Source: Medicago truncatula (lineage: Eukaryota > Streptophyta > Magnoliopsida > Fabales > Fabaceae). Taken from it: 64,000 bases of DNA. Where the stretch lies: assembly GCF_003473485.1 (NCBI RefSeq), contig NC_053045.1, positions 39,096,494 through 39,160,493 on the forward strand, in the 5' to 3' direction. How positions within the stretch are numbered: the stretch's first letter is position 1; the number at the start of each line of letters is the position of its first letter. The notes under the pieces were generated by a model. That model did no database searches, was not told the DNA's origin, and was given only the letters and a program-made list of their open reading frames with translations. A program made the translations under genes and the position numbers. This document shows, piece by piece, positions 1,131 to 62,042 of this stretch.

Positions 1131-1721
1131 GTGAATGATTAAATGATTTGTCCATTCAATTACTGTTGATGTGCATGTTGCACTTTTTGCTTTGGACTAA
1201 AGAAACTTGGGTTCACTAATCAGGTGTCTGTAATGTTTGGTTAAATGGAAGAGATGGAATGTGGTGGAAAGAAATATAATGATATTAGAGTTTCTTATTG
1301 TAATTGTTTCAAATTTGAATCCTTGAAAAGGGATAGAACTTGATAGTATTCAATTTACTTTCTCTGTCTAATTTGAAGTTAGGCTTAATTGCATGTTTGG
1401 TCCCGTATGTTTATCTTAGGTTTCAAGTTGGTCATTTATGTTTTAAATTTTTTAAGTTAGTCCCTTATGTTTTAAAAGTTTCAAATTCGTCCAAAACGTT
1501 AATCACGTTGATATAAGCTAGTCCCTTCTGCCCAATAATATTGAGTTTAATAAAATAGAAAGAATTAAAAAATGTTTTAAAACTCATTCTGTAAATAAGA
1601 AATTCCAACGCCTGTATTCTCAACCAGATCTCTAAATGCCAAGTGATAGAAAGGGTTAACTTACTCCAATTTGAGTAACATTTTTGACCAACTTGAAACT
1701 TTTAGAACTTAAGATCAAGGT

Positions 1722-2783: not shown

Positions 2784-3137
2784 AGTCCCTAAAAAATTTT
2801 CCGTCTACACTTTTGGTCCCTCTTTTAAAGTAAACTCATATTTAGAATACATATTTCTGAATAAAATTTTGCAGAAAATTTTATATGTTTGACGGTTAAA
2901 AATTCATAATTAATTTATGTTTTGTTAAAAAATTCTAATTTTTTGGGGGAATATTTTTTACAATATTCTACACATTTTTGCACAATTTCATTAAAAAAAT
3001 ACAAAAATTAACTTAAAAATAGGGATTAAAAGTAGTGATTGAAAATTTTATAAGGACTAAAAGTTGAAGGAAAATTTTAGAGGGACTAAAACGAAAAGTT
3101 GGTATATTTATAGGGACCAAAAACATATTTAACCCTA
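2716..3137. mobile_element. Nested MITE with long terminal inverted repeats
   Basis: The left end (AAATATGTTTTTGCTCCC, then TATAAATATACCAACTTTTC) is mirrored by the right end finishing at about 3137 (GGGACCAAAAACATATTT). The arms are about 65 bp. The middle is AT-rich and non-coding. This end type with GGTCCC-like boxes is common in legume MULE-type MITEs (inference). An extra copy of the left arm at 2185-2252 comes from the 531-bp duplication. I could not fix the target duplication. Confidence 0.6.
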
Positions 3138-7107: not shown

Positions 7108-7358
7108 TAAAAATTAAGTCAGGATGGCATTAAAACTCATTGTATTAAATAAAACTTCCATTAATATTTCATCACTTTTCATCTTTTCCTTGAGTTGCTT
7201 AAACAAGACAGTAGCAGAAAAGTACAAAAATGCATACTATAGTCCAAGAATAAGGTATGAAGAGTAGCTATCTAGAATACAACATTCTAATAACATGGTA
7301 ATATATCGTCTGAGACTCTGAGTACAATGGATATACAAGTTGTAGTTGTGCCTCATCT

Positions 7359-10300: not shown

Positions 10301-11058
10301 TTTTATTCTGTTATTTAACAACACCAAATCAAATCACCACATACCAGAACCAAAACAAAAAGCACAAGTACATGGCAAAATAAAATTAAAAAAATTCCAT
10401 TTAGAAAACTCTCTTTTGATTAATTAATATAGTTTCTCGAGGACGTCGTGATCAATTACTAAATTTATGTGTCAAAGCAAAGCTTTAAAATTTGCACATG
10501 TAAGTGCATCAATAAGGAAGATTACTTACTTATAACGTACATCCCATCCAGAGAGATTGGCCACTTGTGTCAGTGCTTCCCTCCATCTTTGCACAATTTC
10601 AAAGTTTTGTTGGAATCTTTCTTCATGTTTAGCTAAGGCTTCAGCATAACATCCTTTTTGATATCGCACCTCTGATGGATCAACATCATAGAACACAGGC
10701 AGAACACGTTTTCCAGATAGTTGAAAGCTTTGAAGTATGCACTCCAATTCTCGCAAACACCAAACTGAGGAAGCATAGTTCTTAGAGAAAACCACAACAA
10801 AAATCTGAGAGTCTTCAATTGCTCGAAGGAGTTCAGGTGCTATGGATTCACCTTTCTTCAGCTTAGTATCATCCCTGAATGAAAAAATGATTTTCTTTGC
10901 AGGGCAGCAAAAAGATGATCAGTGAAGTTGAGGCGTGTATCTTTACCTCTAAAGCTGACAAACACGTCATAATAATTTCTCCTTGGAGATGACGAGATGC
11001 TGCTACTGCTGCTGCTGCTGATTTTGATGATACTATTATTACTGCTGGTGCTGGCCAT
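7359..11058 (-). pseudogene. TIR-NB-LRR disease-resistance gene 1 (TNL1), frameshifted in the TIR exon
   Basis: Four exons on the minus strand: 11058-10530 (TIR), 10293-9195 (NB-ARC), 9115-8840 (linker/first LRR), 8675-7359 (LRR and post-LRR domain). All splice sites match those of TNL2. NB-ARC motifs are the P-loop GMGGVGKTT, kinase-2 LIILDNVD, RNBS-B GAGSRIIIISRDEHIL and GLPLAIKVLGSF; the MHD position reads IHR. The post-LRR C-JID-like domain begins PGSEIPSWFNNQS. Relative to TNL2, one base is missing in the TIR exon near 10895 (after LFAALQRK), giving a stop about 16 codons later; total exon length is one short of a multiple of three. The C-terminus is also shifted relative to TNL2 (ends VQVSGN). 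The full product cannot be made from this sequence, though the 66-codon TIR start or an internal NB-LRR start remain possible. An assembly error is not excluded. Confidence 0.85.
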
Positions 11059-16242: not shown

Positions 16243-19200
16243 TTATGGTTGTGCCTCATCTTCAATTGCCAAAAACTTGCGCTTCCGAGCTACAGAATTT
16301 CCGGGATGCATCATTGTTAACTCTTGTAGATCCGGTTTATAAACCCAATGATACCCGCAATTCTGCACCTCCAAATCCAGACCTTGGCCCTTCATAATGC
16401 TAGCTTTCATATTGATATCATCAAGATGTGTGAGAGTTCCGTCTATCCACTTCAGAATATCAAATAATGATTTCTGAGGGAAATACATTAAGCACATGTG
16501 ATTTGATTTGACCACGATATGATCTCTTTCAAGAATGACTGGAATGATGATAAATGAAAACAAGTGACTATTACTATTAGAAAATCTTAGCTCTATTTTG
16601 GGTCTCCGTGCACATGTTGTCGTAGTTGGATCAACAGGTGCAACGGAGAATACTGCACAACAAGCAATGCCAATGAAATCATTGTCATTGTTGTCCATAA
16701 TCTGAGATAGGTCCATTCTTATTGAATCACCCTCGCTCTGATTGTTGAACCAAATTGGTATTTCACTTCCAGGAATAACAATTTTAATGATGTCTTCATA
16801 GGAGAAAGTGGAGGGTTGTTGTCTTGCCTGAATCAATTGTATCATCCATGAAAATGCCATGCTATTGCAATCTTCACTCTCACCCAATTTAGGACAGTTG
16901 AAAATGACCAATCCTACTGTCCTCTTATATGTTGTCATATGCTCGAAAGCAGTAGGAAAAGGAAGTTGAGGCAAAGATTCCAAAAGCTTGCAATGCTCCA
17001 AGTTTAAATATACAAGTTTGGAAAGCTCCCTCAGGCTAGGCAGTGTCACAAAATTGTTCCCCCCTATATTTAATCTTTCTAGTCGAAGTAGACATCCAAT
17101 TGCATCAGGGAGATAGCTTAGACCACAGAAACTGATATCAACTTCACTCAAACAGTATATGCTAAGAAAAGAAGGTAGCAAACAACTAGTTAAAACTTCA
17201 TGATACAAGGAATGCAAACCAATTGTGGTCCATTTCAAGGAGGAAGTTGTTGATTGGGAATGAAATAAAATATCACTCGAATCAAATTTCTTCAAATGCC
17301 TTGGATTGTTAAACACTTTGGAACACCCGGAAAGATTTAGATATTTAAGAGAGCTGAGACCAAGTATGTTGTTCGGTATGCTTACTAGATTTTTGCAATC
17401 TTTCAATTTCATGAAAACAAGCTTTCTTAGAACCCCAATTGATGGATCAATCTGCACAAGCTTTATACAGCCTTTGAGATTTAGCTCTTCTAGATTTGGC
17501 ATCTCTCCAAAATCTGGCACCTTTCTTAGATTCTTTGAGTGGCTTAGATCCAAAATTTTCAAATTGGGCAAATACTGCCACATACCAACAAAAATAGAGA
17601 CAATGTATCATTTTGCTCATAAATCTTACCATAAAAAAGGTGGAAGAAAACACTTTTTTTCTTCTGATTTGTTCGTAAGAGAAAAAAACTAAAAAGAGAA
17701 TTTATAGTACCTTCTTGTCTTTCCATAGTTGTTTGACGCTGCTATGCCTCATGATCAATTCAACAAGTTGATTGGGCTGAAAACATGCTGGCAAATACTT
17801 GAAAGGATATCTACCCCACTCTACGTATCTTAACTCGTTAGAAAGGCAGCCGAGGTTCCCTGCGAACTTCACTTCCTTGAGTATGAGCAATCTAAGATGA
17901 CTCATTTTGGACAATGCTTCACCCATGATTAATATTTCTGTTTCGTTTTCGTCTATATCACAGGGAAAATATATGGCTTCAACCTTCATTTCCTAACACA
18001 TTACAAAAAAGAGAGATTTGAATCAATTTCAATTTATATAGAATATAAATTTTTTTAAATAAGTTTTCTATTTATAAACAACTACAGTTTACCACATTCT
18101 CTAACATAATATTGTGGAGTTGTTCATGGAGCCACACCCTACTCCACCTTCTTGAATCTTTGATTGACTTTTCTTGGACAATTTCTCTGCCCAATTCTTT
18201 TAACAAACTATGCATTTCAATATTATTTTCCTCTGAAATGCTTAGAAGTGATTTATCAATTAGAACTCTTAATCCAATATCAGCATGGAATCCACAGCAA
18301 TTTAGAACTTTTTGGACATAAATCTTCTTGCTCTGAATGAAAAAACAAGCAATGTCAAGAAATATTTCTTTTTCCAATTTTTCTAACCCTTCAAAACTTA
18401 ATCGCATCACATCCATGATATCTTTGTTTGGACTTTTGCTCAATCTAGCCAATGCACTTTTCCATTCATAGATGTCTCGACCAAACAAAAATGATCCCAA
18501 TACTTTAATTGCTAGCGGTAGACCATTAGCATAACTGAGTATGTCAAATGTCAACTTATCAAAACTACTCATAATATGATCAAGTTTGAAAGCTTTTTGA
18601 CAAAACAATTGAAGAGAGTTAGTCCCATTCAAGAGTGGAACTTTGTAAACTACATCAACTCCATACTCTTTCAAGATATGTTCATCTCTAGAAATTATAA
18701 CGATTCTACTCCCTGCACCTAAGCATTCACGATTCACAGCTAATTTATCAAGTTGTTCAACTTTATCAACATTATCAACTATTATAAGTGCTCGTAGGCG
18801 GCGTAGCCTACTTTGTATCAAATTAGTTGTGTCATATAGATTGTATATTTGAAAGTGTTCCCCGCCAAGAGTTTGGTGTAGGATTTGCTTTTGTGCACCA
18901 ATTGGACCATCATGTCTATATATTCTGCTTAGATCATCAATAAAACAACGTACATCAAATCGATGAGAGATTCTACCACATAAAGCAGTAGTAAGAGTTG
19001 TCTTCCCTATTCCACCCATCCCACAAATTCCTACAACCCGAACATCATCAACGGAGTCCAAAAGTAATAGATTTGCTACTTTTTCTATAGGATAATTTAT
19101 TCCAACTAATTCTTTTGGAAGACATGAAAATTTGTGACCCGATATATTCGTTATCTCTTCAACAATCTTTTCAATCTCTGCATATTGAGGCCTGAAAGTT

Positions 19201-19879
19201 TTAAAAAGTCACCAAATAACAACAAATCATTACATTAAGAAATTAAAACAAAAAGCATGTGAGCAGGCGAAGACAACAAAACTTTATTTCTCCTTTTAGA
19301 GAATTGTTGTTCTCAACTATAGTTTGAAAAGGGAAAGTGAAAACAAATATATATTGTTAAATTTAATTGTCAAACCCTTAAAATTTGCATATGTAAAACC
19401 ATCAATCCGTAGAAAATTTCTTACTTATGATGCATATCCCAACCAGAGAGATTGGCGACTTGTGTTAGACTTGCCCTCCATCTTTGTACCATCTCTGATT
19501 CATGTTGGAATCTTTCTTCGTGTTTGGCAAGGGCTTCTCCATAACTTCCATTTTGATGTCTCACCTCAGAAGGATCAACATCATAGAAAATAGGGAGAAC
19601 ACGAGTTCCAGAAACTTGACTGCAGTGAAGGATGTATTCCAACTCTCGCAAGCACCATGTTGAGGAAGCATAGTTTTTTGAGAAGAGTACAATAAAAACC
19701 TTTGAGGCTTCAATTGCATGAAGGAGCTCGGGTGCTATGGATTCACCTTTCTTCAGGTTAGAATCATCCCTGAATGCAACGATGCCTTTTCTTTGAAGGG
19801 CAGCAAAAAGATGATCGGCAAAATTGTTGTGTGTGTCTTGGCCTCTAAAGCTCACAAAAACGTCATACTTGATCATCAT
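16243..19879 (-). CDS. TIR-NB-LRR disease-resistance protein (TNL2), intact
   Basis: Intracellular immune receptor. TIR domains of this class act as NADases on oligomerisation and signal through EDS1 (family knowledge). Four exons: 19879-19425, 19191-18093, 17992-17711, 17574-16243; 3,168 nt, 1,055 aa, no interruption. TIR about 1-150 (YDVFVSFRGQDT; WCLREL with the catalytic Glu). NB-ARC: P-loop 209-217 (GMGGIGKTT), kinase-2 about 286-294 (ALIIVDNVD), RNBS-B GAGSRIVIISRDEHIL, GLPL about 375-378. The MHD position (478-480) is MHS, not MHD. LRRs occupy about 560-820, then a C-JID-like post-LRR domain (PGSEIPIWFNNQSEGDS, near 880). The C-terminus holds ARKRK, a possible nuclear signal. The start is MMIKYDVF at 19879; another ATG at 19929 is out of frame. 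Ligand unknown. Confidence 0.9.
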
Positions 19880-20815: not shown

Positions 20816-20819
20816 ACAG

Positions 20820-22178
20820 CAGATCCATGATATCTTTGTTTGAACTATCTCTCAATCTAATGCACTTTTTCATTCAAAGATGTCTCGACAAACAAAAAAG
20901 AGCCCAATACTTTAATTGCTAGTGGTAAGCCATTAGCATACCATAGTATGTCAGATGCCAGCTTATCATAACTACTCATGAGATGATCAATTTTGAAAGC
21001 TTTCCGACTAAGCAATTGAAGAGAGTCAGTCCCATTCAACAATGGAACTTTGTAGACAACATCCACAACAAACACTTTCAAGATATGCTCATCTCTAAAA
21101 GTTATAATGATTCTACTCCCCGCACATAACCATTCATGACTCAGCTAGTTTTTCGAGTTGTTCAACTTGATCAACATTGTCAAGAATTAAAAGGGACTTT
21201 ACACTACATAGCCTACTTTGTTTAAAGTTAGATGCATTGTAAAGATTGCATATCTGAAGGTATTTTTCACCTAGAGTTTACTTTTGAGCACTGATCGGAC
21301 CATCATGCCTATAAATTTTTCTTAGATCATCAATAAGGAAGAGCACAGGAAATTGATGAAAGATTTTGTTGTATAATGCAGTAGCGATAGCTTTCTTCCC
21401 TATTCCACCCATCCCACAAACTCCTACAACCCGCACATCATCAACCGAATCCAAAAGTAAATGTTTTTCTAATTCTTCTGTAAGAGAATCCATCCCAGCT
21501 AAATAATTTGGAAGACTTGTAGACTTGTAACCCAGTATATTCATAATTTCTTCGACGATCTTTTCAATCTGAGCATCGCTGCAAGTTTAAAACAGTTAAC
21601 CAACAACACCAAATCACAGTATACCAAAACCAAAACATAAAGCACCAATACATGACAAAATAACAGTTTTTATTCTTTTTAGAAAACTCTCTTTTGGTTA
21701 ATTAAAATAGTCTGTCAAGGGGTTCTTAGTTAATTACATTTATGTGCCAATATATGCTTTAAAATTTGCAATATATATAATACCGACAAGGAAGATTACT
21801 TACTTATGACGCACATCCCAACCAGAGATTGGCGACTTGTGTTTGAGCTTCCCTCCATCTTTGCACCATCTCAGAGTCTTGTTGGAATCTTTGTTCATGT
21901 TTGAAAAAGGCTTCAACATAATTTCCTTTTTGATATCTCATCTCATAAGGATCAACATCATAGAAAACAGGCAGAACATGCCTTTCGGAGACTTTAATGC
22001 AGTGAAGGATGGATTCTAATTCTTGCAAGCACCAATAGTTGAGGAAGCATAGTTCTTAGAAAATACCACAATGAAAATCAGAGAGTCTCGATTGCTCCAA
22101 GGAGCTCTGATCCAATGGATTCACCTTTGTTGAGCTTAGAATCATCCCTAAATGCAAAAATACCTTTTCTTTGGAGTT
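20820..22178 (-). pseudogene. TIR-NB-LRR pseudogene (TNL3), both ends missing
   Basis: A partial TIR exon (about 22178-21804) starts within the TIR domain, just after the QRK-FAFRDD region, and runs through VLPVFYDVDPYEMRYQKG to the same GTAAGTAATC donor as TNL1. The NB-ARC exon (21578-20820) has an altered P-loop, GMGGIGKKA instead of GMGGIGKTT. It carries several frame changes, including one near 21280, and stops at NKDIMD where a LINE fragment begins. There is no linker, LRR or post-LRR exon. The P-loop Thr to Lys change would by itself abolish nucleotide binding. Confidence 0.85.
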
Positions 22179-36085: not shown

Positions 36086-38015
36086 TTAAGCAACTGGATA
36101 AGAAGGATTGGTGGCAATTCCACATAAACCTTTTTTAGAATCAACGTTTCGCTTCAATTTCATGTACCCTTTCTCACCCCACCCAGTACCCCATGAATTT
36201 TTTACTAACCAATACTCAGTATAATCAAGTGATACACCATAACCAACAATAGTAACAACATGATCTGTATCAGTTCCACATTTTCCTGTAAAAATTCCAC
36301 CTGAGTAAAACTGAAATACATAATCTCCTGCATCAACATAAACTGATACAGGTTGATTTGCCACAGCTTTTAGAAGATCATTTTCACTATTAGAAGGAAC
36401 TTTCTCATACCCTTTAATCTCAGCTACATGCTTTGATTCCTTCTTAAATTTACATTTCTCGTCGGTTTCTTTGTAAGGGTAGTTTGTTTCACTTGCCATT
36501 CCTCCTTTCTTTGCAATAAATTTGAATGCATCTTCTAAGTAACCACCACTGCATCCACTGCTATTACCTCTCACACAATCTATCAGTTCTTGTTCTGATA
36601 GTGACACTAGTTCACCTGTTGTTATTTGGTGGATACCCTCTATGGAAGCCACAGTTGAAAATGCCCAACAACTACCTATATTTTTCACAAGTTCATATAA
36701 CAACCAAAAAAATTGTGCAAGTATGTTAGAAAACGATAAATGTTTATTTTCATAGAAGAAAGTGATAAATGTTGTGACCGTAAAATATGATTAGATGTAT
36801 ATGTAAAAAAAAAAAATATTTGAAGGATGTAAACTTTTGTATAGTACCTACTTATTAGATTCTATGCTACTATAAAAAAAAATATATGAGTTTTGTTAAC
36901 GAGTATCCTCAGAACATTTTTTATACATTCTAAAATGAGTTATTATTTTTTTTAAAAATTAAATATTTTGATTTTCAATGCATTAATTACACATTTTTTT
37001 ATAAATACTTGTTACTTATGGTCCTTAAAGAGTGCCCAAGAGACATTAGTTAATATTTCCCAAAATATACTATGGACCGACTGATTTTTCAAATTGGTCT
37101 TAAATCGGTCTCTAAATTCGGACATTAAATAAGTTTGTAGTTGATTTAGAGACCAAGTGATCTAAAGTCACTAAGACATGATTGCTAATGTTAGTGACCA
37201 TTTGACATATTTTTCGGTCTCTGAATATGTCTATATATCCATCATTATGTAATAGTTTTTTTAGTTAATAATTTTAGGGTTATTTGTTACATGATATGAT
37301 TATATATGTTTTTAGTTTCTAAAAAATCGTGACCTTTAAGTTCAGTCCATATATAAATTTTATTTAATCTTAGTCTCTATTTTTATTAATTTTTACAACA
37401 ACAAAAAAATTGTGTTTTTAGTCTCTACATTTTGTCCCTATAAATCAAAGTAATGACTAAAATTGTAAGGAATTTATATAATGATTAAACTTGAAGAAAC
37501 ATAAAGTTTAAAGACACTAAAATCAAATTTAATTCTTAACTCTTATTATAATATATATTTGGTTTATTATACGTACCACATGATCCTTGGTTTTTGATAG
37601 GAGTAACGGCACCTCTTTTCCTCCAATCCATGGAAGCTGGAACAGAAGTTACATTGTGATACCTGAACGACGTTGTTTCATTTAAAATGTCAAATTTATC
37701 ATGCAACTTCTTGTTCCCATTAAGTGAAGCCTTAAATTCTTCATTAGTTAGGTCAGCAAAATGGTTAATACTAAGGTTGAAAGGTTTGTTTCCAACAGCA
37801 TTGAACAATTCAATGAACTCCACATTATTCTTGAATATTTGAAAACGTTTTTCCTTCTCTGCAGCATCTTTGTAAGATTTTCCAAATTGTGTCATCCATT
37901 TCTCATGTTTATTTGATAAGTAGGGTTCAAGAACCCTGCTAGACATTACATAAGGGAGCATCCATGTTGTGAAAATGAGAAACATAGGTATAATAAAATT
38001 GTTTGGGGAAGTCAT
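36086..38015 (-). CDS. Papain-family cysteine protease (C1A, SAG39/vignain-like) 1
   Basis: Two exons: 38015-37577 and 36675-36086; 1,029 nt, 342 aa. The protein is a secreted or vacuolar pro-protease. The signal peptide is about residues 1-25 (FIIPMFLIFTTWMLPYV). The I29 propeptide holds an ERFNIN-type helix (EKEKRFQIFKNNVEFIELFN). The mature domain starts near VPASMDWRKRGAV. Catalytic residues are Gln in KNQGSCGSCW, Cys149, His285 (in TDHVV) and Asn306 (KNSWG). The intron splits the Gly codon before SCW, as in the two paralogs. The start at 38015 (MTSPNNF) is preferred to an ATG 18 codons upstream, which would add a Lys-rich leader before the signal peptide. A TATA box CTATATATAAAT is at 38141-38152. 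The intron carries a MITE. Confidence 0.92.
36892..37062. mobile_element. MITE, GTTAACGAGTGCC family, copy 4, in a protease intron
   Basis: Left end TTTTGTTAACGAGTATCCTC; right end GAGTGCCCAAGAGACATTAG followed by TTAATATTTCCC. It lies inside the 901-bp intron of the protease gene at 36086-38015; the paralogs at 45 and 54 kb have introns of only about 403 and 223 bp. Confidence 0.6.
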
Positions 38016-38140
38016 TTTCTGATTTTTTTTTTTTTTTCTTTTCTTTTTTAGTAGCTTTGATTTGTTCAAGTGTTAAATGTGTATTGTGTCACACACACTC
38101 AAAGATAATTGGGTTTGCAACAAAAGTGGTACCTTCGGTG

Positions 38141-43642: not shown

Positions 43643-44903
43643 TTGTATAAAAGTTCCCGTGAGTTTTAGTTGATAAAAGCAATGCATAATATATGTAGAG
43701 GTCGATGTTCGAATCAAAGAAAAAGAAAACAAATATGAGGAATCCAACACAGAAACTAACAAAATTGTAAAAATACCCTTAAAGTTAAACGCCTTTAATT
43801 TTGACATATTTTTTTAAAACTCGCTATCCAACACAAAAACCAACTAATAGGAGGGATCCAATCAAACATTTTACTTGCGCGAGCCCTAATTAAATGCGGA
43901 GTAAAGCTATATATGGACTAATCCACTAAAACTAACAACAATAACAATCAAACTTTAAAGGGAGCACTCAAACTTTAAGATAAACACACTTCAAGTTCTC
44001 AAATCAACACAAGTAGACCGGCCAAAATGAATTTTATGCATTTTTTACATTAACCGCGGGTTTAACAAAATTAAGCTCAACGTGATTTCGTCAAACTCAT
44101 GATTGCTATTAATATATGCTTGATCATTTTTTTTATTTGTTAAGAAAAAATATCAAGTATTTACTTGATCATTATAAAAAAAGAGTTATATTATTTAAAT
44201 ATTTAATTTTAACAATAGGCGTGACATTGTATAATTCTATCTTTTTTTAGATAGCCAAAATGATAAATATCTATCGAAACTCACGCACACTAGTAAAGGG
44301 GTTGGGATTCAAACCCTTGTTACAACTTCCAACCTAATAATTTTGGCATTTTTACTGGTTAAGTTAGGACTCGTGGACTTTATCTCTTACTTTTTTTTTT
44401 CATTTTGTACACTTTATAAAGATTTCAAAAATACCCAAGTAAATAAAAGAGTCGAGGAGTTAAAGGTTTAAGGTTCACAAGTTAGCAACACTATGATCTA
44501 GTTTAGTCCCCATATATTCTCCTGTAACAATCCCCACTTGAGTCTATAAAGTTGGAAAGAAGACCATCCAGCATCAATAGAAACTGACAAAGGCTGAGTA
44601 ATTAATTACTTTATTTAGTAAATTAAAAAGATAATGGTTGAAATGGGTCTTTAGGATGTAACAATATACTGTTTCAAATTTCAATCATGTCTTAATATGT
44701 GTAAGTTGTAGAAGGTAAAAATTCAGAGAAATAAAGATGAACATATACAACGTATTTTGATGTTCAAATAACATAGTTGTATTAATTTTGTATAAGTGTA
44801 TATTTAATGTTTCTAAAATATAAGTTTAAATTCATGTAGCCATATGTTCAAACAAGATAAAGAAAAATACAAGCTTGAGACACAAGTTACATAACTGGAT
44901 AAT
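43643..44903. other. Intergenic DNA, SINE remnant and protease 2 downstream flank
   Basis: 44270-44372 (-) has a SINE-like box B (GGGTTTGAATCCC) and a box A-like CCTAACTTAACCAG. From about 44725 on, the sequence matches 53655-53785 and belongs to the duplicated protease block. The rest is AT-rich and empty. Confidence 0.45.
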
Positions 44904-46329
44904 TTAAGCAGTTGGATAAGAAGAATCCATGGCAATACCACATAAGCCTTCCTTAGCAGCTATACCTCTTTGCATCCTTATGTACCCTTTTTCACCCCAC
45001 ACAGTGCCCCATGAATTCTTCACAATCCAATAATCAGTACCATTAGCACTACCATATCCAACAGCAGTGACACCATGATCTAGCTCAGTTCCACATTCTC
45101 CTGTATAAATTCCACTTGAGTAAAACATGAAACTTGAGTCACTAGCATCAATGGAAACTGATATTGGTTGGTTCGCCACAGCTTTGAGAAGTGATTTCTC
45201 ACTATTAACTGGAACTTTCTCATATCCTGTAATCTTAGCCACAGGAGTGGTTGTTGCAGTGTTACAACTTCCATCCGCTGCTTTATAAGGGTAATTAGTC
45301 TCACTTGTAATTCCACCATTTTTAATGATAAATTCAAATCCATCTTCCATTAATCCTCCTTCGCATCCTTGGTCTTCACCTTTTGTGTCACAATCTACTA
45401 GCTCTTGTTCTGAGAGGGAGACTAGTTTGCCTGTAGTTATTTGGTTGATACCCTCGGTTGCAGCCACCGTTGAAAATGCCCAGCAGCTCCCTTTTGTTTC
45501 ATTTTCAAAACAAAATCAACAGAAAGATTATTTATTTAATCCAATTGATTAAACTCAAATCAAATAAAATTATATAGTAAGAACAATATACCATATATCA
45601 TTAAGGTTTATTACTTTATGCACAATAGTTAATAAGTATGATATGATTGAGCATTTGTTTAATTAAATTCATATAACAAAGTGGTTGAGATCAAATTGTT
45701 AATAAGTTTCGGTTAAAGTTAAAGCGTTTAAGACCACCCGAGTTTGATCACTGACTTGAATAATCTTTGATCAAACTATATTTATCCACCAAAATTACTA
45801 GGCCCCCTTTCTCTAGAAACTAGAGGATTAAGAAGAGAGAAAATCATATAATAAAGTATTTTTATGTATGATATTGTTTATAGTTTATCTTACCACATTG
45901 ACCTTGGTCCTTGATTGGAGTGACAGCTCCTTTTACTCTCCAATCTACAGCTGCTGGAATAGCAGTAACATTTTCATACTTAAATGATGTTGTAGTAAAC
46001 TCACGATCAATCTTCTTGTAACCATTACGGGAAGCCTTAAATTCATCAAGAGTCAAATCAGCTAGGTGATTAACACTTAGCTTGTAAGGTTGATTATCAG
46101 CTGCATTGAATGATTCAATGAACTCAACATTGTCTTTGAATATCATGAAACGTTTTTCTTTCTCAATAGCATCTTCGTACACTTTGCCATGTTCTGTCAT
46201 CCATTGTTCGTGTCTTTCTTGTAAAGACAGTGACTCGTACAGTTTTCGGGACATGACATTGGTAATACCAGCAACTGCAAGGAGGAGGAACAGAGCCAAT
46301 ATGTATTGGTTTTTGCTAGTGGAAACCAT
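44904..46329 (-). CDS. Papain-family cysteine protease (C1A, SAG39-like) 2
   Basis: Two exons: 46329-45894 and 45490-44904; 1,023 nt, 340 aa. Signal peptide about 1-26 ([17 protein letters not shown]). I29 propeptide with [20 protein letters not shown] and a [12 protein letters not shown] stretch. The mature enzyme starts near [13 protein letters not shown]. Catalytic Gln142, Cys148 (QCGSCWAF), His284 (LDHGV) and Asn304 (KNSWG) are all present. Disulfide cysteines occur in [13 protein letters not shown]. There is no granulin domain or C-terminal KDEL, so it is SAG39-like rather than RD21- or CEP-like. The family degrades protein in the vacuole or apoplast, often in senescence or defence. Nearly identical to the gene at 53786-55031. 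A (GT)n tract lies in the 5' leader at 46364-46388. Confidence 0.95.
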
Positions 46330-46435
46330 TTTCTATTGTTATCAAAGAAAGCTTCGTTGAGGCGTGTGTGTGTGTAATGTGTGTGTTTGAGGGAGAAATG
46401 TAAATTGGTATGAATTGAAGGCAATAGCATTGATA

Positions 46436-47320: not shown

Positions 47321-47599
47321 ATAACATGTCTAGTTAATACGATACGCCATAATTCTAACAATTGAAATTAATAGAGAAACTATTTTTGAATGATATCTTA
47401 CAATTTTGAGATGTATTCGCTAATTCTTAAAAATAAGAGACTATTTTGAAAAGGCTTAAAATTTTGTGGATTAATTAAAGAGCAACCAAAACAATATTGG
47501 ACACTGCATATTCCAATGACCCCGGTATAGCACCGCACACAAATACCTGAAGTAGCAATCCCCCTTATGAAATTTGATAGTATTAGTCATAAGGGCATT

Positions 47600-48742
47600 T
47601 TTTTGCAATTTTCCATAGAAGCAAATGGATTTGCGGACCTTTCCACCACCACAAAACCATAAAAATATCGTGAGGAGCCACCGAAGGGGAACCCTACAAG
47701 AATCTAAGAGAAGATTCTATTGAGAACTGGTCATTATAGACGCCACTTAGAGCAATTGAGTCCGATCCTAGAAGATCGGATGGAGGGATCATGAAGACCT
47801 GCATTATTGGAGAAGAAAATGCGTCTCTTGTATGGTTTTCCTATATAACTAGAACTAGAGCAAAAAAATATCAAGAATTCCTTTTTTTGGCATTTACATG
47901 ATCCAAAACGCCTCCGCAAAGAGGAAAATATCATCTGCAAAATGCAAATAAGACAATCTTGGCCACAAGGACGGATCTTTTTGGGAGCCCATTGTAGCCA
48001 TGGCTCCCCCCAAATTTAGTATTAATACTATATTAGGCATAAATTATCAGGTGTTTCACTATCGTCTCAGTGGAAACAAAAGGTGTTTTGCATGAAGGGG
48101 TCGTTAGATCAATTCCAAGTGTCTGCTTTTTCTGCATCAATAATCTGAAACCGAAGGTGTTTTGCATCAAGGCTGGAGGGACACCCTATGTCAAGCAAAA
48201 CATCATGACTAAAGTTCCATTTAAGCGATCATAAACTTTCTTCAAGTCTATTTTTATCGCCATCCGCCCTTTAAAACTAGTTTTTTCTTATGGAATCGAA
48301 GACATCCAGAATAATAATATTATTGTCATTGCTCTAACGGTTGAGAATAAAGCTACACTGACAAGTACTCGCTAAATGCTCAATAATTCCTCTAAGGCGG
48401 GTTATCAATAATTTGGTAATCGCCTTATAAGAGACATTGCAAAGACTAATAGGTTAAAAGTTCCTCATATGAACAACCGGATCCACATTTAGATAAGGGT
48501 AATAAGAATTTCAATAATTTTCGTCCACCCTCGCATGATTATTGAAGATGTCAACCAGATCACATAAATACCTAAAAACCACTTTCACCTGACTTTGATT
48601 AAAAAAAAGGGATTGAAGACTATCAACCCAAGGAGCCTTACATCCTCCATACGAACCGAAATTTTTTACCACGAGTAATCAGTTTAGCAAAACTATTTAT
48701 TTTCACTTATGAGAGCTGAGGGATAGTTCTAGATAGATAAAA
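47600..48742 (-). mobile_element. L1-type LINE, 3' portion (reverse transcriptase), split by a CACTA element
   Basis: Read on the minus strand from 48742 downward: KAPWVDSLQSLFF (near 48650), then PISLCNVSYKAITKLLITRL followed by RGIIEHL (near 48400), then the catalytic motif HFADDIFLFAEAF (near 47930-47890). This is the usual order of plant L1-type reverse transcriptase blocks (KAPGxDG, PISLCN, FADD). It is interrupted by stops and deletions. The 5' portion is at 52704-53180, and the two parts were separated by insertion of the CACTA element. The 3' end and tail are not clear, perhaps near 47460-47600. Confidence 0.85.
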
Positions 48743-49029
48743 CACTACTAGAAAATATAAATTTAACATCAGGGTGTTTTTAATTTTCACATCAGTGCGG
48801 AAAATACCTGAAGGGAAAGATACATGCTGTGAGTTTTTACATCAGTTGATATAAGTACATGAGGGGAATTGCTAATAACATATAACATTTACATCAGTGG
48901 ATAATTGAAATGAAGGGAAAAAAACGCGGTGGCATATTTGCAATTTGGGTGAAAACTTTGGCTAACCTTTTTTCACATCAGTGGTGAGAACTGCCTGAGG
49001 TAAAACCAAATTTTCACTTTACCTTATCC

Positions 49030-51807
49030 CTTCCTCAATCGTAAAACGCTTCCACACTTTCACCCTCACCGTCCAAAGCTCTCTCAATCGTAACCTCTCA
49101 CTGCACCATCCAAAGCCAAACCCTATCAATCGTTCTTGTTCGTCATTCATTCATTCACCGTCCAAGGGCTCTCCCTCTTTCTCTCTCTCAAGCGGAACCT
49201 CTCACCGTCACCGTCGAAGCTCACTCTCTCTCAATCGGAACCTCTCACCGTCCAAGCGTTCTCTCTCTCTCTCTCTCTCTCAATCGGAAGCTCTCTCTCC
49301 GGTGAGTTCTCTCTCTCTGACTTTTCAATCGGTAACCCTAACCCTTTGTTGTTAAAAAAATCGTGAAACCCCTTTTCAATCGGTGGAACACAGTACTTAG
49401 AACCCTAACCCCTAATCCCTTCTCTCGATTGTTCAATACTTAGAAAACTGGTGTTGTTGTTCTTACACAAACTAAGTTTGAAGATGTTCACTGCTTTTTA
49501 GTTTTGAATCAGTTTGAAGATGTTCACTGCTTTTTAGTTTTAAATATTGTTCCTTATGAATTGTTGGTCTTCCATTTTACTCTGTTTCATGCTATACTGA
49601 TTGATTTCAAAAAATGGGTGTTGTCTCATTCCATTTTACTCTGTTTCATGCTATACTGATTTGGGATTACACTATTGTTTGCCCTAGCATAGGAAAATAT
49701 TGATCGATTTGTCTTTGATGCTGTTGATTTCAGCAGCCTTGATCCCTGATATGATTTTCAATGTTATAATGTTTTATATTGCCTAGTAACAGAGTTCAAT
49801 GTTAAGTGTGGGGTTTCAATTGTCAATACTGTTTAAAACCCTCCTTTAGGTTCAGTAATGTAGTTATTGTTGCACCTTTACTTACTTTGGAAAGATGAAA
49901 TTTTGGTCACCACAAATAAAAATCAACAAGAGTAGTGAATGAGAAGATGATTTGTCATAGTTCCTTTGTTTTTCTTGTACAATTTCCTTATTCCCTTTAT
50001 CTACTATTATGTTTAAGGTGAATGTCATCAATTTGCTATTGTTAGTTGTTGTACTTTTTTATGTGAAATTTGATTGTTGATTTTTGTAACTTTTATTTGA
50101 AATTGCATGCTAATGTGTTTTGATTGATTAGTGAAATTGGTTGATTTAGTTTAGAATATCTAGTATTGGTTGAATTAGTTTATTTTATTGACTGCAATTG
50201 CTGCCCTGTTTAATCCTTAATTTTTTTTTTAATATCGAGGATTGTGATGTATCTACAATTGCAACTTAAATCCTTGGCTCCTTGAAATTTAAGCATGGAG
50301 TATAATGAATCTCCTGCATTAGCATGCAATCACTAGTTTATGTATCAAATTCTTTAGAGATACAACACACCATACTGAAAATGACTTAACAAAGTAGCCT
50401 CACAAAAACATTTGCTTTCTGTTAGGTAACACACTACTAGTAGTTTTTTACTGCTTTCTTGTTATCCTCAGCTCCCTTTTTTCCATGTGTTTTCTTTTTT
50501 GAAAAAAAGGAGACACAACATTCAATATGTTTTATTAGTAACGTAAGTTTGTCTCCTAACAGTTATTTCAATTCACATTGTTGTTAGTTCAGTTTGTTGT
50601 TACATATTTCATCGGGAACAAACACATGAGGCAGAAAAAAAATTGAAGCCTGCTGTTGGTCAACGAGAGTATTCTTCATCCACTAAAGTTTTAATTCACT
50701 TCTTCACCTACTCAATTCAGCTTAATGTTTGAAGTTACTTCCAATGGTACTACTACTAGAGAGTAGAGACAAGTGTGCAGTGTGTGACATCTAGCAAAGT
50801 TCTCTAAGAAGTTCTTTTTTTTTGAAGGAAAGTTCTCTAAGAAGTGCTGTTATCTAGGAATGATGGCATATATTGGAATTTCTTGTTTTTTTCTTTGGTC
50901 CATTGGTGAAGTGACAGCATCATCTTCTATGAATTGAAGAGCTTTCATATTTATATACAAATCAATGAGGTTGACTATTGCAAAATAAATCCAACTTCAG
51001 GTGTGAAAGTCATTCTTCTTGCAGATTTCTTTTTTTCTTGTTTTGTTATGTTTTTTCAGTTCTAACCGACAGCGACGACGACATGATATCATTCATATGA
51101 CTTCTACCTTCATCTTTTGTAGACTGATTTCTAATTTCTTTGTCCTCATCCCTTTAATTTCTTGAAATGATGGAAAAAATATCTAATAAGTTTGTGTTGC
51201 TATGTTATTGCGTTTCATGGTACACCATTCAGCCAATTCTAATTATGTTCATCAATCTCATGGCCTACTAGATAACCCTTTGGATTCACTTTTTCCATTA
51301 ACCTTGACTTTATGGAATCTGTGATGGTTTAATCTAAGGATCAACCTTCTGAATTTGCAGGCACTGAAGTCGAGTCGAGTTTTTTTTTGTCCGTTTGGTA
51401 TAAAAAACAACAAACAAAAATGAAGTTCATGAAACTTGGGACAAAGCCAGATACTTTCTACACTGAACAAGCTACCAGGTATTCACAGCAGCATTTGTTT
51501 CATTAACAATCACTGTACAATCCTTTCACAAACTAACATGTATTCTCATAAATGCAGGACATTGACATCAGAGATACCCTCATACCTTGTGATACAGATC
51601 AACGATGTTACTTATCTGCTACACAAGGTATTAAGGACTTAGAACTCAAGTGGATATAAACCAAAATATTTTGATTTTAGTTCATCTATACAATTATTTT
51701 CTTTTTATCTGCAGTTTGCCCTTCTTCCAAAATGTAGACTCCTCCAAAGGCTTTGCTATGATTGTAGTGATTCAAAGAGTTTTATTGTGGATATTGCTAT
51801 AATATAA
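49030..51807 (+). CDS. Captured NPH3/RPT2-family gene 5' end (BTB-domain fragment) inside the CACTA element
   Basis: A CT-rich leader (about 49030-49301) ends in a donor (G|GTGAGT at 49302). A 2,059-bp leader intron ends TTTGCAG at 51360. The ATG is at 51420. Coding exons: 51420-51478, 51558-51627 and 51715-51807; every intron keeps GT-AG and phase. The 222-nt frame encodes 73 aa: MKFMKLGTKPDTFYTEQATR, TLTSEIPSYLVIQINDVTYL, LHKFALLPKCRLLQRLCYDC, then SDSKSFIVDIAII. MKFMKLGxxPDTFYTxxATR and the BTB start (DLVIQIN..YLLHKFPLLPKC.LLQRLC) are hallmarks of plant NPH3/RPT2-like CUL3 adaptors, normally about 600 aa. The match ends after SDSKS, where captured sequence stops. A product would have only the first BTB strands. 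Whether it is transcribed is unknown. Confidence 0.85.
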
Positions 51808-52365
51808 CTTCTTAGATTGTATTCATATATGCATATGTACTTTTTTAAATATAAAATATTGATGTGTCATTCTTCTTATTTTTGAAATAAAAGGAATGCA
51901 GTTTAAATAAAAAAGAGCTTAATATTTGATTATTTTGACATGAAATTTTGATGAAAACGTTAGTAAGACTAATTCTACATTTAACTTTTAACACATTTCA
52001 ATTAACTTTTAACACATTTCAACTGTAAGCTTTCGTCAAACTCTTTTAGTCTTTATCCTACAATCATTCATCTTTGGCATGATATATTAATGGTTGAGAT
52101 GATATTGTCCGATGTTGCTGTGGCTATGCTTGATTGGGATATATATAGTTTGATGAATATTATGTCCGAAGATGTTTTTATTTTTTTAAAAAGATTATGC
52201 CCAAAGATGTTGTCATAGCTTTATGTTGAATTGTTGATATTACTATAATATAACTTCTTTGATTGTATTTATATATGCATGTACTTTTTTATATATAAAA
52301 TATTGATGTCGCATTAAAATATCCATAATTTTTTTTCTTCTTATTTTTAATATAAAAGGAAAGAG
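51786..52365 (+). repeat. Direct repeat within the CACTA interior
   Basis: Sequence at 51789-51905 (GCTATAATATAACTTCTTAG to AAATAAAAGG) recurs at about 52248-52362 (ACTATAATATAACTTCTTTG to ATATAAAAGG) with moderate divergence. The repeats flank a roughly 340-bp stretch, suggesting an internal duplication after the capture. Confidence 0.65.
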
Positions 52366-52703
52366 GTCTCAAGCTGATCTGGTAAGCATTCTTTAAAAAA
52401 AGGAGCTTTTTTTAAAAAAAAAATTATGGATTTCACATCAGTGGGTAAAAGGACTGATGTGAAGTATACATGTTTAACTTCAGTGTCTATCATAAAACTG
52501 ATGTGAAAAACCTATTGTTAAATTTTAAGGCGAACGTACCACATCAGCGGAATAAAGGCCAGATGTGGAAAAGAAGATTTCACATCAGTTCGTACCTGAT
52601 GTGAAAAGATGTGAACATACTACATCATGACACCTTACATCAGTTGCCACCTGATGCGAAAAGTGCTTTTCAACTGATGTGAAAAATCCTTTCTGTAGTA
52701 GTG

Positions 52704-53180
52704 AAATTTGATCAAATTCTTCCTCATCTGAAAATATATTTTTGTAGAAACTAGTCACAACCCGACTTAATTCATCCTTATATGTAATTCAATTCTCATC
52801 AACATCTTGTACTGTCTCAAACTTATTTTTGCAATGATGAGTGGCATTCAGAATGGCAATCACCCCACTTAAGAATTTAGTATTACGATCCCCAAAAATC
52901 TAACCAGTTAGAGTGATATTTTGGGTGCCAAAGGATTTCTAGTTGCATCAAAACTTCTTCATGTTGCTTCCAAGCTTCATGTAAATTATGATCCAAATAG
53001 GGTGTGAAACGATAAATCAACCGATGATTCAAAGAATTCATCTTCTTAATGAGACTCCTATTGTGAGAAAAACATTCCAAAAAACTCTCTTATTCCACTC
53101 TTGTATCTCATATTTACATTTTAAAGATCATCATTCCACGACATCACTGAATTTCTGTTTTGCTACATGAAGATATCAAA
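52704..53180 (-). mobile_element. L1-type LINE, 5' portion (endonuclease-RT linker), continues at 47600-48742
   Basis: The minus strand reads MNSLNHRLIYRFTPYLDHNL, then LHEAWKQHEEVLMQLEILWH, then the GDRNTKF block (GGGGATCGTAATACTAAATT near 52887). It then gives LSGVIAILNATHHCKNKFET and VQDVDENWITYKDELSRVV. GDRNTKFF followed by a DxxGxW-like stretch is the standard linker of plant L1-type ORF2. The endonuclease domain proper is missing or unreadable, so the LINE is 5'-truncated. Confidence 0.8.
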
Positions 53181-53785
53181 ATTGGTGTAAGCATGAAACT
53201 TAAAGGCCCTACTGTTTGGTTGTTCTGTCATCAAAATCTTGATTGGTGGTCTAAGAAGAAGAAAACCTAAAGGACCTGTGTAGTCTCTTCCTTTGCTTTT
53301 CTCGTCTCAATTTTGCATTCGAACTGTTTCCTCTTCGATTTTTGCATTATTTTTGTGTTGAAGTTTTAAATGTTCCATTTTTTCCCGATGTGGTAAGAAC
53401 ATATTTGAACTTCGTTCATGTAAACATCATCCAGTTATAAAAAATCATATGGATACATGAATACAATTCATGTAGTAGGTATACGCATAGACGCAGGGGC
53501 GGAGGCAGGTCTTTCGATCAATAGGGGCTAAACATATATTTAATGTGATTATATTTTAGTATTTTAATTTTAAAATTTTGCATAAGAACAATTTAAATTA
53601 AAATTAGTATGTTTCTATGTGAAATAAATTTCTAGAGTTATTAGTATAATGATTGGGAAAAATTAAAAAGAAACAAATATGTATAGATTTTGATGTTCAA
53701 ATAACAACCGTTCAGATTTCGTATAAATGTATATTTAATGTTGTTAAAATACAAGCTTGAGACACAAGTTACATAATTCAACAGG
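53181..53785. other. Spacer and duplicated 3' flank of protease 3
   Basis: 53181-53640 shows no recognisable gene; GACGCAGGGGCGGAGGCAGG near 53490 is like part of a common legume repeat. 53655-53785 is collinear with the protease 2 downstream flank. Confidence 0.4.
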
Positions 53786-55031
53786 TTAAGCAGTTGGATA
53801 AGAAGAATCCATTGCAATACCACATAAGCCTTCCTTATCAGCTATACCTCTTTGCATCCTTATGTACCCTTTCTCACCCCACACAGTGCCCCATGAATTC
53901 TTCACAATCCAATAATCAGTCCCATTAGCACTACCATAACCAACAGCAGTAACACCATGGTCTAGCTCAGTTCCACATTCTCCTGTATAAATTCCACTTG
54001 AGTAAAACATGAAACTTGAGTCACTTGCATCAATAGAAACTGATATTGGTTGGTTCGCCACAGCTTTGAGAAGTGATATCTCACTATTAACCGGAACTTT
54101 CTCATATCCTGTAATCTTAGCCACAGGGGCAGTTGTTGCAGTGTTACAACTTCCATCAGCTGCTTTATAAGGGTAATTAGTCTCACTTGTAATTCCACCA
54201 TTTTTAATGATAAACTCAAATCCATCTTCCATTAATCCTCCTTCACATCCTTGATCTTCACCTTTTGTGTCACAATCAACTAACTCTTGTTCTGAGAGGG
54301 AGATTAGTTTTCCTGTAGTTATTTGGTTGATACCCTCGATTGCAGCCACTGTTGAAAATGCCCAGCAGCTCCCTTTTGTTTTATTTTCAAGACAAAATTA
54401 ACAGAAACATTAATTATTCAATTCAATTAGACTGAGTCACAAAAAACAATCATAACAATAAGAACAATGTATAGCATATATAATAAGGGTTCGTTTCCAG
54501 AGTTCGTTTCCTTAGAAACAGGAGAATCAAGACAAAGTATATTCATATAGTAAATTAGTATTTGTGTGTATGATATTGTTCATTGTTTATCTTACCACAT
54601 TGACCTTGATCCTTGATTGGAGTGACAGCTCCTTTTACTCTCCAATCTACAGCTTCCGGAATAGCAGTGACATTTTCATACTTAAATGATGTTGTAGCAA
54701 ACTCACGATCAATCTTCTTGTAACCATTACGGGAAGCCTTAAATTCATCAAGAGTCAAATCAGCTAGGTGATTAACACTTAGCTTGTAAGGTTTGTTGTC
54801 AGCTGCATTGAATGATTCAATGAACTCAACATTGTCTTTGAATATCATGAAACGTTTTTCCTTCTCAATAGCATCTTTATACAATTTTCCATATTCTGAC
54901 ATCCACTGCTCGTGTCTTTCTTGTAAAGATGGCGACTCATACAGTTTTCGGGACATGACATTGGTAATATCAGCAAGTGCAAGGAGGAGGAACAGAACCA
55001 ATATGTGTTGTTTTTGGCTAGTGGAAACCAT
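53786..55031 (-). CDS. Papain-family cysteine protease (C1A, SAG39-like) 3
   Basis: Two exons: 55031-54596 and 54372-53786; 1,023 nt, 340 aa. Same architecture as protease 2: signal peptide ([17 protein letters not shown]), I29 propeptide, and catalytic Gln142, Cys148, His284, Asn304. The mature domains differ at only a handful of residues (for example AATEG/AAIEG, KLVSL/KLISL, TTTPV/TTAPV, NSEKS/NSEIS, IAAKEG/IADKEG). The propeptide differs more ([32 protein letters not shown]). The open frame and conserved catalytic residues suggest both copies are active. The intron is 223 bp against 403 bp in protease 2. Confidence 0.95.
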
Positions 55032-55124
55032 TTTCTTGTTATCAAAGAAAGCTTTGTTGAGGTATGTGTGTCTGTTTGAGGGAGAAAAGTAAATTGGTAT
55101 GAATCGAAGGCAATGGTATTGGTG

Positions 55125-55134
55125 GTTTATATAG
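55125..55134 (-). promoter_or_regulatory. TATA box of protease gene 3
   Basis: CTATATAAAC on the minus strand, about 94 bp before the ATG; the counterpart of 46436-46445. Confidence 0.65.
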
Positions 55135-56617
55135 AGATTACAGACTCTAAATTAATCTGAATCTACAATCTACGTGGTTGCTTTCTTATTCAAGGTTCCT
55201 GCCACGGCATATTGCATTTGATATAGATGGGTTATGGGTGATTTCTTTTATTTCTTACTATTATTTACATAACATGGTAGCTTGTGTTTTGTCTAAGTAG
55301 AACATTGCAACTTGGTCAAAATTCATTAAACAATTGAATAAAAATGTGCTTATGTAAGAAACAGAATAGCGAACAACTTACACACGTAAAAAATAATATG
55401 AATGGGCAAATAATACTAGGGATTATGGATTCTTTTCTTTTTATGGGTTTACCCATATTTGATGAGCCTAACTTTGTATGGTGATTAAATTCCCTTGCAC
55501 GGAAGTTTGTTGCATGACATGACTAAGATAAAGTTGCATGACATGACTAAGATAAAGTTGCATGACATTTGTGTATACTAATTTGAACATTTAATGCTAG
55601 TTGTTAAGAGAGTAAACAGACAAATTGATTTTGGAAATTTTAACTATCAGTCAAAATATCCTCCAATTTTCGCAATTTGACAAACTCGTCCCTAAAATTG
55701 TTTAGTCTCATTCAAACTAGTCTCAGTTAACTTCATCATAGCAAGTTCGCCTATGGCTATGATAATTTTGTTAGAGACAACTTAAATTTTAAAGACAAAT
55801 TAGTTCATAAATTTTTTCAATTTTACAGAAAAATTTGAAGTGCAGAAGTTTGTTTTCTCAATTAAAATTATGGCTAACCCAAAATAAAAAGTCGAAGGGA
55901 GTAAAGCAATTTTTCAACATTATGATCCTTAAATCAAGGTTACCAACATCGAATACAAATTCTCGGTAGAAATAGCATTTCTCAATATAACTATACAATT
56001 GATTAAACCAATAACATCACTTATATTGGGTTGAAAGCGCACCATTGTAGTACACTGGTATTAAAACTCCTGTTTTCCTACAACCACTACACGGCCAAAG
56101 TTTATATCGAGGTGTTTTTTCACACATGTTGCCATTAAAAAAATAAAATTCAACGACTGTAACAGTATAGAAAATTTTTCAGAGAAACATAGTTGTAGTA
56201 GCTAAAACAGGTACTGTTAATACTTAATACCAATGCCCTGAGCCCCAGCCTATGCTGGATGGATATAGATAAGATTAACTCCAACGGCCATGATTCAGTT
56301 AGTTAGAAACGGGTTGTTAATTGATGAGAGGGCCTGTTTCGTTTTGTTTATCAGGGAACCTCAACAGTAAAATATTCTCCACGTCGTTCTCATTTTTCAT
56401 TTCGAGCCAAAAGTATAACGCAAATTATTGCCTTGTTTTAATTTAGCATAGGAGTATTTAACACAGCTGTAGGTAATCCATGTGCTTCATCATAAAAACA
56501 TAACAAAATCATAAGAACAGTGATCCAAAATCTGTCTGATAATTAAGACATTGTCCAAGAGAGACCAAACTATAGTTGCCAAAAACAGTAACATACTTCT
56601 AAAAGAACTCAGTTTAA
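55135..56617. other. Protease 3 upstream region and RPL11 downstream region
   Basis: Up to about 55577 the sequence is collinear with the protease 2 upstream region, apart from a 24-bp tandem repeat (CATGACTAAGATAAAGTTG unit, two copies, about 55513-55563). 55620-55830 holds a TCGTCCCTAAAATTG to TTTAAAGACAAATTAG pair that may be a MITE. 56340-56617 is the 3' flank of RPL11. No gene is seen. Confidence 0.45.
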
Positions 56618-60580: not shown

Positions 60581-62042
60581 TCAGTAATTCACACTCTCTA
60601 AATGAAAAGCTTCTTCCATGGCCCTCAAAACTGACAAAAGCTCTGCAGAGATCACGCCATCGGGTTCCAAATTGGTAATGTCATTCCTGTTAAAGGGAGA
60701 TGTTTTTTCCTTTGCTCCTTCAAAAATCACAAACCTACAAACCGGACACTGACCTTTACTTGTTAACCAAGTTACTATACAATCCTCATGAAACATGTGG
60801 TTGCATGGAGTAAGCATCACCTCTTCTTTGGCCTCAAAATCCTCCAAGCAAATAGCACATCTCATACCATCTTCCGTCTTTTCTTTAACACTCTCTTTCA
60901 AATCATTTGCAGCATTGCCTCTATAATATAAGCTCACTTTTCTAGCTAAACGCTTTGGTGTAGGGTCGTACACTACTTTCCTTAACTTGCTTAATAAAGT
61001 CGATTTGGAATTTTCTACCGATTGTGGAACTCGAGTGTTTGTTTGCTGTGTTGATGTTGACCTTGAAGGTGAATGCTGGAAAATCTCTCTGATTCTTGTG
61101 GGGTTGTAGCCCCTTCTTCTCATGTCCTCATTGTGATTATAAGTTTGTTGTCTTCTATGTGGTTGTAATGGAAAACTGCAAATTGTTCAAAAATTATAAT
61201 AAGTTCATGTAACTAAATAGAACACTCCTTTGCTGAAAAACAATATTTGGAAGAACTATATTACTACAAAAAAACCAAGATCTCATTATCATGGTGTGTT
61301 CCTTTTTCATCCTTGAGAATACCAGTTTCATTGTTTAATGTTTGCATCAATCAAATACTTTTAAATTCTCAAAAATTTAAAGCAATTGAAACAAACATCT
61401 ATATATAATCATCTCAGTAGTTTATCATACAATGAAAATATCTTCTCACACTAATATTATCAAGAACTGTATATTTTTTTCAATAAAAAAAAAAAAAAAA
61501 CTGGTTTCTTGAATATTATGTTCTATGTATGTAATTATAGGAAGTCTAAACAGATATGAAAAATTGATACAAACACAGACACATAAACACCGGTAATAAG
61601 TCAACAAAATAGAAGTTGTTGAATGTAACCACATGTGTCACGCTTGTAATTTAAAGTGTTGGTGCTACATAGCTACACACATAAGCAAACTTGAAATTTG
61701 GCCTTACTATGGTATCCTGTGATGTTCTGCAGGAGTTCTTCTGATTTCCCACAATTGGAGAGGATCTTGAGCACCTGAACTCCTCTCATCCTGTTAACAT
61801 GAACCAAAATTAAATTAAATTTTTCTTTTGTATATTCCCTGCCATATCCTAAAAATGTTGTTATTAAATCAAGAATGTGATAGACTTACATTGGCCCTAG
61901 AAGAATGATGAGATCTGTAAAACACAGGTACTTCATTGAATTCATGAGGATTATTGGAAGTGTGATGAGGAGCACCATAGGCTCTAGAATCTGTTCTCCG
62001 AAGCCCTGGCAAAGGCGTAAAATTGTTCATGTTTCGGCTCAT
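60581..62042 (-). CDS. RING-H2 finger E3 ubiquitin-protein ligase
   Basis: Three exons: 62042-61890, 61790-61708, 61175-60581; 831 nt, 276 aa. Start MSRNMNNFTPLPGLRRTDSR. The N-terminal 170 residues are polar (His, Asn, Arg, Ser), probably disordered, with a basic segment KRLARKVSLYYR. The RING-H2 finger spans about 185-225 with the ligands C185, C188, C203, H205, H208, C211, C222 and C225 (CAICLEDFEAKEEVMLTPCN, then HMFHEDC, then CPVC), a canonical C3H2C3 set. The C-terminus has LLSVLRAMEEAFHLE, a short helix. No transmembrane segment, unlike ATL proteins, so it is probably a soluble ligase. Substrate unknown. Confidence 0.92.

What the first reader, a model, noticed from the sequence alone, without database searches (positions are those of the whole stretch)
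48743..52703. CACTA transposon that captured the spliced 5' end of an NPH3/RPT2-family gene
Both termini, the AAA target duplication and ACATCAG subterminal arrays define the element. Inside are a leader, a 2-kb leader intron and three coding exons with all splice sites kept, giving a continuous 73-codon frame that starts exactly like NPH3 proteins. Preserved introns show capture at the DNA level. The truncated BTB start could act as a decoy transcript or as a source of small RNAs against parental NPH3 genes.
Basis: partly seen in the sequence, partly recalled or inferred. Interest (0 to 1): 0.82.

Follow-up and report, generated by a model that had tools for sequence, protein, structure and literature searches.

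The report
CACTA transposon carrying a gene fragment
A short plant "jumping gene" without a visible transposase appears to carry a copied 5' piece of a light-signalling (NPH3-type) gene with its introns, which is a well-known habit of such transposons and most likely has no function of its own.

Summary
The element is real. Window 48743-52703 (3,961 bp) has CACTA/TAGTG inverted ends (11 of 13 match), AAA on both sides, and 13 ACATCAG/CTGATGT motifs in its outer 280+280 bases (simulated mean 0.12, maximum 3). Inside, three GT-AG introns (2,059, 79, 87 bp) join a leader and three coding exons into a 73-codon frame. That protein finds this place, and no other at E below 1, in the window. The last 7-9 residues probably come from other DNA.

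It reads as a non-autonomous Pack-CACTA element, the kind to which soybean Tgm-Express1 belongs (PMC1947982). The captured piece ends inside the BTB domain, and two positions of the HKFPLLS box (recalled) are changed, so inert cargo is likelier than a decoy or small-RNA source. The host genome is not held, so the parent gene, the leader's origin, expression and sister copies could not be tested.

The parts
48740..48742 (.). left copy of the AAA target-site duplication
48743..48755 (+). 5' terminal inverted repeat CACTACTAGAAAA
   Evidence: 11 of 13 match the 3' end
48766..48981 (+). 5' subterminal array, five ACATCAG motifs at 48766, 48789, 48839, 48891, 48975
49030..49301 (+).
   Evidence: transcription start not shown, origin inferred
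49302..51360 (+). putative leader intron, 2,059 bp, CCG|GTGAGT ... TTTGCAG|GCA
   Evidence: splice sites only
51361..51478 (+). exon with end of leader and ATG at 51420 (19 codons and 2 bases)
51479..51557 (+). intron, 79 bp, GT-AG
51558..51627 (+). coding exon 2, 70 bp (ends ...TYLLHK)
51628..51714 (+). intron, 87 bp, GT-AG
51715..51807 (+). last coding piece; NPH3-like up to about 51780, then 7-9 codons and stop probably in other element DNA
51784..52372 (+). AT-rich filler holding a direct repeat (51784-51871 / 52230-52315, and 51870-51907 / 52335-52372)
52435..52680 (+). 3' subterminal array, ACATCAG at 52435, 52541, 52582, 52637 and CTGATGT at 52454, 52498, 52596, 52674
52691..52703 (-). 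3' terminal inverted repeat (reverse complement CACTACTACAGAA)
52704..52706 (.). right copy of the AAA target-site duplication

Best explanation
A non-autonomous Pack-CACTA transposon. Its ends and subterminal repeats are the cis signals by which a CACTA transposase made elsewhere in the genome would move it (inferred from known CACTA biology). At some point it took in the 5' part of an NPH3/RPT2-like (NRL) gene as genomic DNA, introns included. The likely route is the one proposed for Pack-CACTA: two close insertions mobilised as one (inferred). The cargo stops inside the BTB domain and runs into AT-rich element DNA with a nearby stop. It is most likely inert cargo: at best a spliceable transcript giving a 73-residue peptide with half a domain.
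For: CACTA ends, AAA duplication and a subterminal array far above chance. No ATG-to-stop frame of 60 or more codons in the 3,961 bp on either strand, and no transposase family among the 10 longest of 131 stop-to-stop frames of 20 or more codons (two weak unrelated hits below cut-off). Spliced frame 34 of 63 identical to one recalled NRL protein and 29 of 65 to a second; 0 of 2000 shuffles reach either score, also with residues 9-64 alone. By tblastn the first recalled protein finds 51420-51479 and 51556-51774 in the window at a combined E of 7e-8, and its next place has E 1.4. A 247-residue recalled form of that protein is recognised by Pfam as NPH3 (PF03000, E 5.7e-10, residues 201-246) and, below cut-off, as BTB (E 0.053, residues 26-111). 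All 3 introns are GT-AG. The HKFPLLS box of both recalled proteins reads HKFALLP here, consistent with decay after capture. The kind is published: Tgm-Express1 of soybean carries five host gene fragments spliced as exons (PMC1947982), and over 10,000 Pack-TYPE elements were annotated in rice and maize (PMC8903248 abstract).
Against: No library or collection gave an NPH3 match to the 73 residues: Pfam 0 families, solved structures one chance hit at E 1.1, viral contigs none, plasmids none. For Pfam this is uninformative, since the first 63 residues of the recalled protein also match 0 families. The NPH3 identity thus rests on sequences typed from recall. Pfam's significant match lies outside the compared stretch, and the second recalled protein was not checked against Pfam. 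Splice sites and frame are intact, which inert cargo need not keep; recent capture would explain this. A transposase split into short exons or badly decayed would have been missed.
Confidence: 0.85

Rival explanations
1. The captured piece is transcribed and acts on its parent genes, as a source of small RNAs or as a decoy transcript or half-BTB peptide.
For: Intact splice sites and frame; AATAAA behind the stop at 51886 and 51906. [quoted passage not shown]
Against: No expression data. The piece ends at about residue 63-66, while the weak BTB match of the control runs to residue 111, so no complete domain is made. The cargo is present once, and the inverted repeats found in the element are short and imperfect except one 16-nt A/T-rich pair: 16 pairs, the longest 33 nt at 73%; the one within coding exon 2 has 23-nt arms at 78%. 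No long hairpin is seen.
Confidence: 0.1
2. Not one captured unit: the leader with its 2-kb intron and the NPH3 coding piece come from different genes and were brought together in the element, as with the several fragments of Tgm-Express1.
For: The leader exon differs in composition (GC 51%) and nothing here ties it to NPH3. Tgm-Express1 carries five unrelated fragments (PMC1947982, abstract). The 3' filler holds an internal duplication of unknown origin.
Against: A CT-rich leader and a long leader intron directly before an ATG is ordinary plant gene anatomy (recalled). I saw no junction inside 49302-51360, but have no reference to detect one.
Confidence: 0.2
3. A local NPH3 pseudogene that happens to lie between two unrelated CACTA ends.
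For: Ends and 3-bp duplication of this quality alone arise in 15 of 100 simulated windows.
Against: Both ends carry the same ACATCAG subterminal motif, rare in the rest of the window (13 against 2). Two recalled NRL proteins find no other place in the window below E 0.6.
Confidence: 0.04

Closest known systems
Tgm-Express1 (CACTA, soybean wp allele; PMC1947982)
   Same: CACTA element carrying host gene fragments with exons, introns and splice sites kept
   Different: 5.7 kb with five gene fragments, in an intron of F3H, with RT-PCR proof of splicing; here one recognised gene fragment between two cysteine-protease genes and no expression data. The subterminal motif here is ACATCAG; that of Tgmt*, whose type Tgm-Express1 shares, is built of TTGGCAG and AATCTTACAG (PMC2613891, passages)
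Pack-CACTA / Pack-TYPE elements (PMC8903248)
   Same: Non-autonomous TIR transposon holding coding DNA inside conserved ends (abstract and section 9)
   Different: No sister copies could be searched here, so family membership by clustering is untested
pvCACTA1 of common bean (PMC4938662)
   Same: CACTA element with AT-rich (WWW) 3-bp target duplications, as AAA here
   Different: pvCACTA1 elements are small with 145-158 bp TIRs (passages); here the clear end match is about 13 bp and the cargo is large

Membership tests
CACTA (En/Spm) superfamily | CACTA...TAGTG inverted ends | tested here: met
   11 of 13 positions match
CACTA (En/Spm) superfamily | 3-bp target-site duplication | tested here: met
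   AAA on both sides; 3 bp is weak by itself
CACTA (En/Spm) superfamily | subterminal repeats in direct and inverted order | tested here: met
   13 motifs against simulated mean 0.12; both orientations at the 3' end, one at the 5' end
CACTA (En/Spm) superfamily | tnp2-type transposase (autonomous copies only) | tested here: not met
   no ATG-to-stop frame of 60 or more codons; no transposase family in the 10 longest of 131 stop-to-stop frames; expected for a non-autonomous copy
Pack-CACTA | host gene DNA between the ends | tested here: met
   spliced frame matches recalled NRL proteins, 0 of 2000 shuffles as good, tblastn E 7e-8; references typed from recall
Pack-CACTA | an intact parent gene elsewhere in the genome | not testable with these tools
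   host genome not held
Pack-CACTA | sister copies with the same ends | tested here: inconclusive
   no second copy in the 64-kb window; an end pattern in viral contigs 0; host genome not held
NPH3/RPT2-like (NRL) protein | complete BTB plus NPH3 domain | tested here: not met
   73 residues, 0 Pfam families; a fragment, not a working member

The most novel reading that the evidence does not exclude
The element family has spread this spliceable half-BTB exon set through the genome, and its copies produce trans-acting small RNAs or a competing peptide that tunes several NRL genes.
Probability: 0.04. Interest if true: 0.6.

Novelty: new member of a known kind. Interest (0 to 1): 0.22.

Why it matters
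It is a clean example of DNA-level gene capture by a CACTA element with splice sites and frame intact. It could serve annotators, since the fragment may be mis-called as an NPH3 gene, and as one more case for how such elements collect exons. It does not change the picture of Pack-type transposons.

Tried and rejected
Host-genome search: not possible, no genome held. Pfam, solved structures, viral contigs and plasmids with the 73 residues gave no relative. Looking for a real NPH3 gene in viral contigs and genome contigs with a recalled NPH3 protein gave none by tblastn (0 of 4 and 0 of 59 pattern matches). Paper searches for NPH3 peptide motifs found 0 papers, for CACTA with NPH3 and 'captured' 0, for CACTA with 'NPH3 family protein' 0, and for the terminal sequences 4 papers, none on plants or transposons by title (listing only). 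The library holds open-licence papers only.

Empty-site test: I thought that the flanks are one decayed LINE-like reverse transcriptase on the minus strand, which would show the exact insertion point. Of 7 flank pieces given to Pfam (3 of the 7 proteins, all 4; several overlap on the DNA in different frames) only 1 matched RVT_1, at E 0.012, below Pfam's cut-off. One other gave a DUF hit at E 0.078, taken as chance. The only piece from the right flank gave none. The frames also do not join cleanly. I do not use this as evidence.

Full report
Observation. Its ends read CACTACTAGAAAA and, on the other strand, CACTACTACAGAA (11 of 13 match), and AAA stands on both sides. In 100 windows simulated with a first-order Markov chain of the window's base steps, 50 hold a pair with at least 10 of 13 matching and a 3-bp duplication, and 15 hold one with at least 11, so these features alone would not be enough. 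The subterminal arrays make the case: 13 ACATCAG/CTGATGT motifs in the outer 280+280 bases against a mean of 0.12 (maximum 3) in the simulations, and 2 in the rest of the window.

Cargo. The introns 49302-51360 (2,059 bp), 51479-51557 (79 bp) and 51628-51714 (87 bp) are all GT-AG (3 of 3). The spliced coding exons give 73 residues, MKFMKLGTKPDTFYTEQATRTLTSEIPSYLVIQINDVTYLLHKFALLPKCRLLQRLCYDCSDSKSFIVDIAII, and a stop. Local alignment with an NRL protein typed from recall gives 34 identities in 63, and with a second recalled one 29 in 65. None of 2000 shuffles reaches either score, also when residues 9-64 alone are used. By tblastn over the whole window the first finds this place in two pieces at a combined E of 7e-8 and nothing else below E 1.4; the second finds it at E 0.001 and 0.03 and nothing else below E 0.62. 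A 247-residue recalled form of the first is recognised by Pfam as NPH3 (E 5.7e-10, residues 201-246) and weakly as BTB (E 0.053, below the cut-off, residues 26-111). Its 170-residue form finds BTB proteins among solved structures (best E 0.0014). So it is a real family sequence at least in those parts. Pfam finds nothing in the 73 residues, nor in the first 63 residues of the control, so that negative says nothing.

Where the NPH3 part ends. A direct repeat of about 88 bp, 90% identical, joins 51784-51871 with 52230-52315 (without gaps, starts it at 51779). A second one joins 51870-51907 with 52335-52372. The frame runs into the first copy for its last 7-9 codons. The NPH3-like piece is therefore probably about 63-66 codons and the rest a chance reading of filler; a duplication that began in NPH3 sequence is not excluded. 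The captured part ends inside the BTB domain.

What was not shown. The host genome is not held. The parent gene, the unity of leader, leader intron and coding exons, sister copies, expression and small RNAs are all untested. The captured region begins close behind the last 5' subterminal motif (48975), so little or none of the parent's promoter need be present (inference).

Mechanism. Known CACTA biology: a transposase made elsewhere cuts at the CACTA ends, and a DNA-binding protein is proposed to attach to the subterminal repeats (passages of PMC2613891). For capture, Pack-CACTA elements are proposed to form when two near insertions are mobilised as one (PMC8903248 section 9; PMC13317346 passages). 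Kept introns fit DNA-level capture and argue against a spliced-RNA route. The element has no ATG-to-stop frame of 60 or more codons, and the 10 longest of its 131 stop-to-stop frames match no transposase family, so it would depend on others. In the HKFPLLS box of the recalled proteins two positions are changed here (A for P, P for S), which fits decay. I hold inert cargo as most likely; the regulatory reading is possible but without evidence.

Comparison with the known. Tgm-Express1 in soybean is a CACTA element with five host gene fragments that are spliced as exons (PMC1947982, abstract and Discussion read). Over 10,000 Pack-TYPE elements were annotated in rice and maize (PMC8903248 abstract). 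No paper in the library holds CACTA, NPH3 and 'captured' together, or CACTA with 'NPH3 family protein', so this cargo may be unreported there, but the kind is well known.

Noticed in passing
44904-46332 and 53786-55151 (minus strand), also 36086-38072: Papain-like cysteine protease frames in tandem; 44864-45608 and 53746-54491 are 92% identical; Pfam Peptidase_C1 for the 53786 copy, the only one scanned, E 2.7e-73. The CACTA element lies between two of them.
   Followed up: partly
7345-10971, 16248-19867, 20817-22176: Tandem resistance-gene-like stretches, about 76-81% identical in DNA, TIR-NBS-LRR-like by eye; the one frame scanned, 18072-19208, matches NB-ARC and the Roq1-like winged helix.
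   Followed up: partly
47590-48650 and 52705-52893 (minus strand): The flanks of the element look like a decayed LINE-like reverse transcriptase; the piece at 48337-48534 matches RVT_1 at E 0.012, below cut-off, 1 of 7 pieces. The element may sit inside it.
   Followed up: partly
1721-2254 and 2252-2785: A 534-bp tandem duplication, 99.8% identical, within a repeat-rich stretch 1-5200.
   Followed up: no
60581-61186 (minus strand): RING-H2 finger protein frame, zf-RING_2 E 3.1e-16.
   Followed up: no
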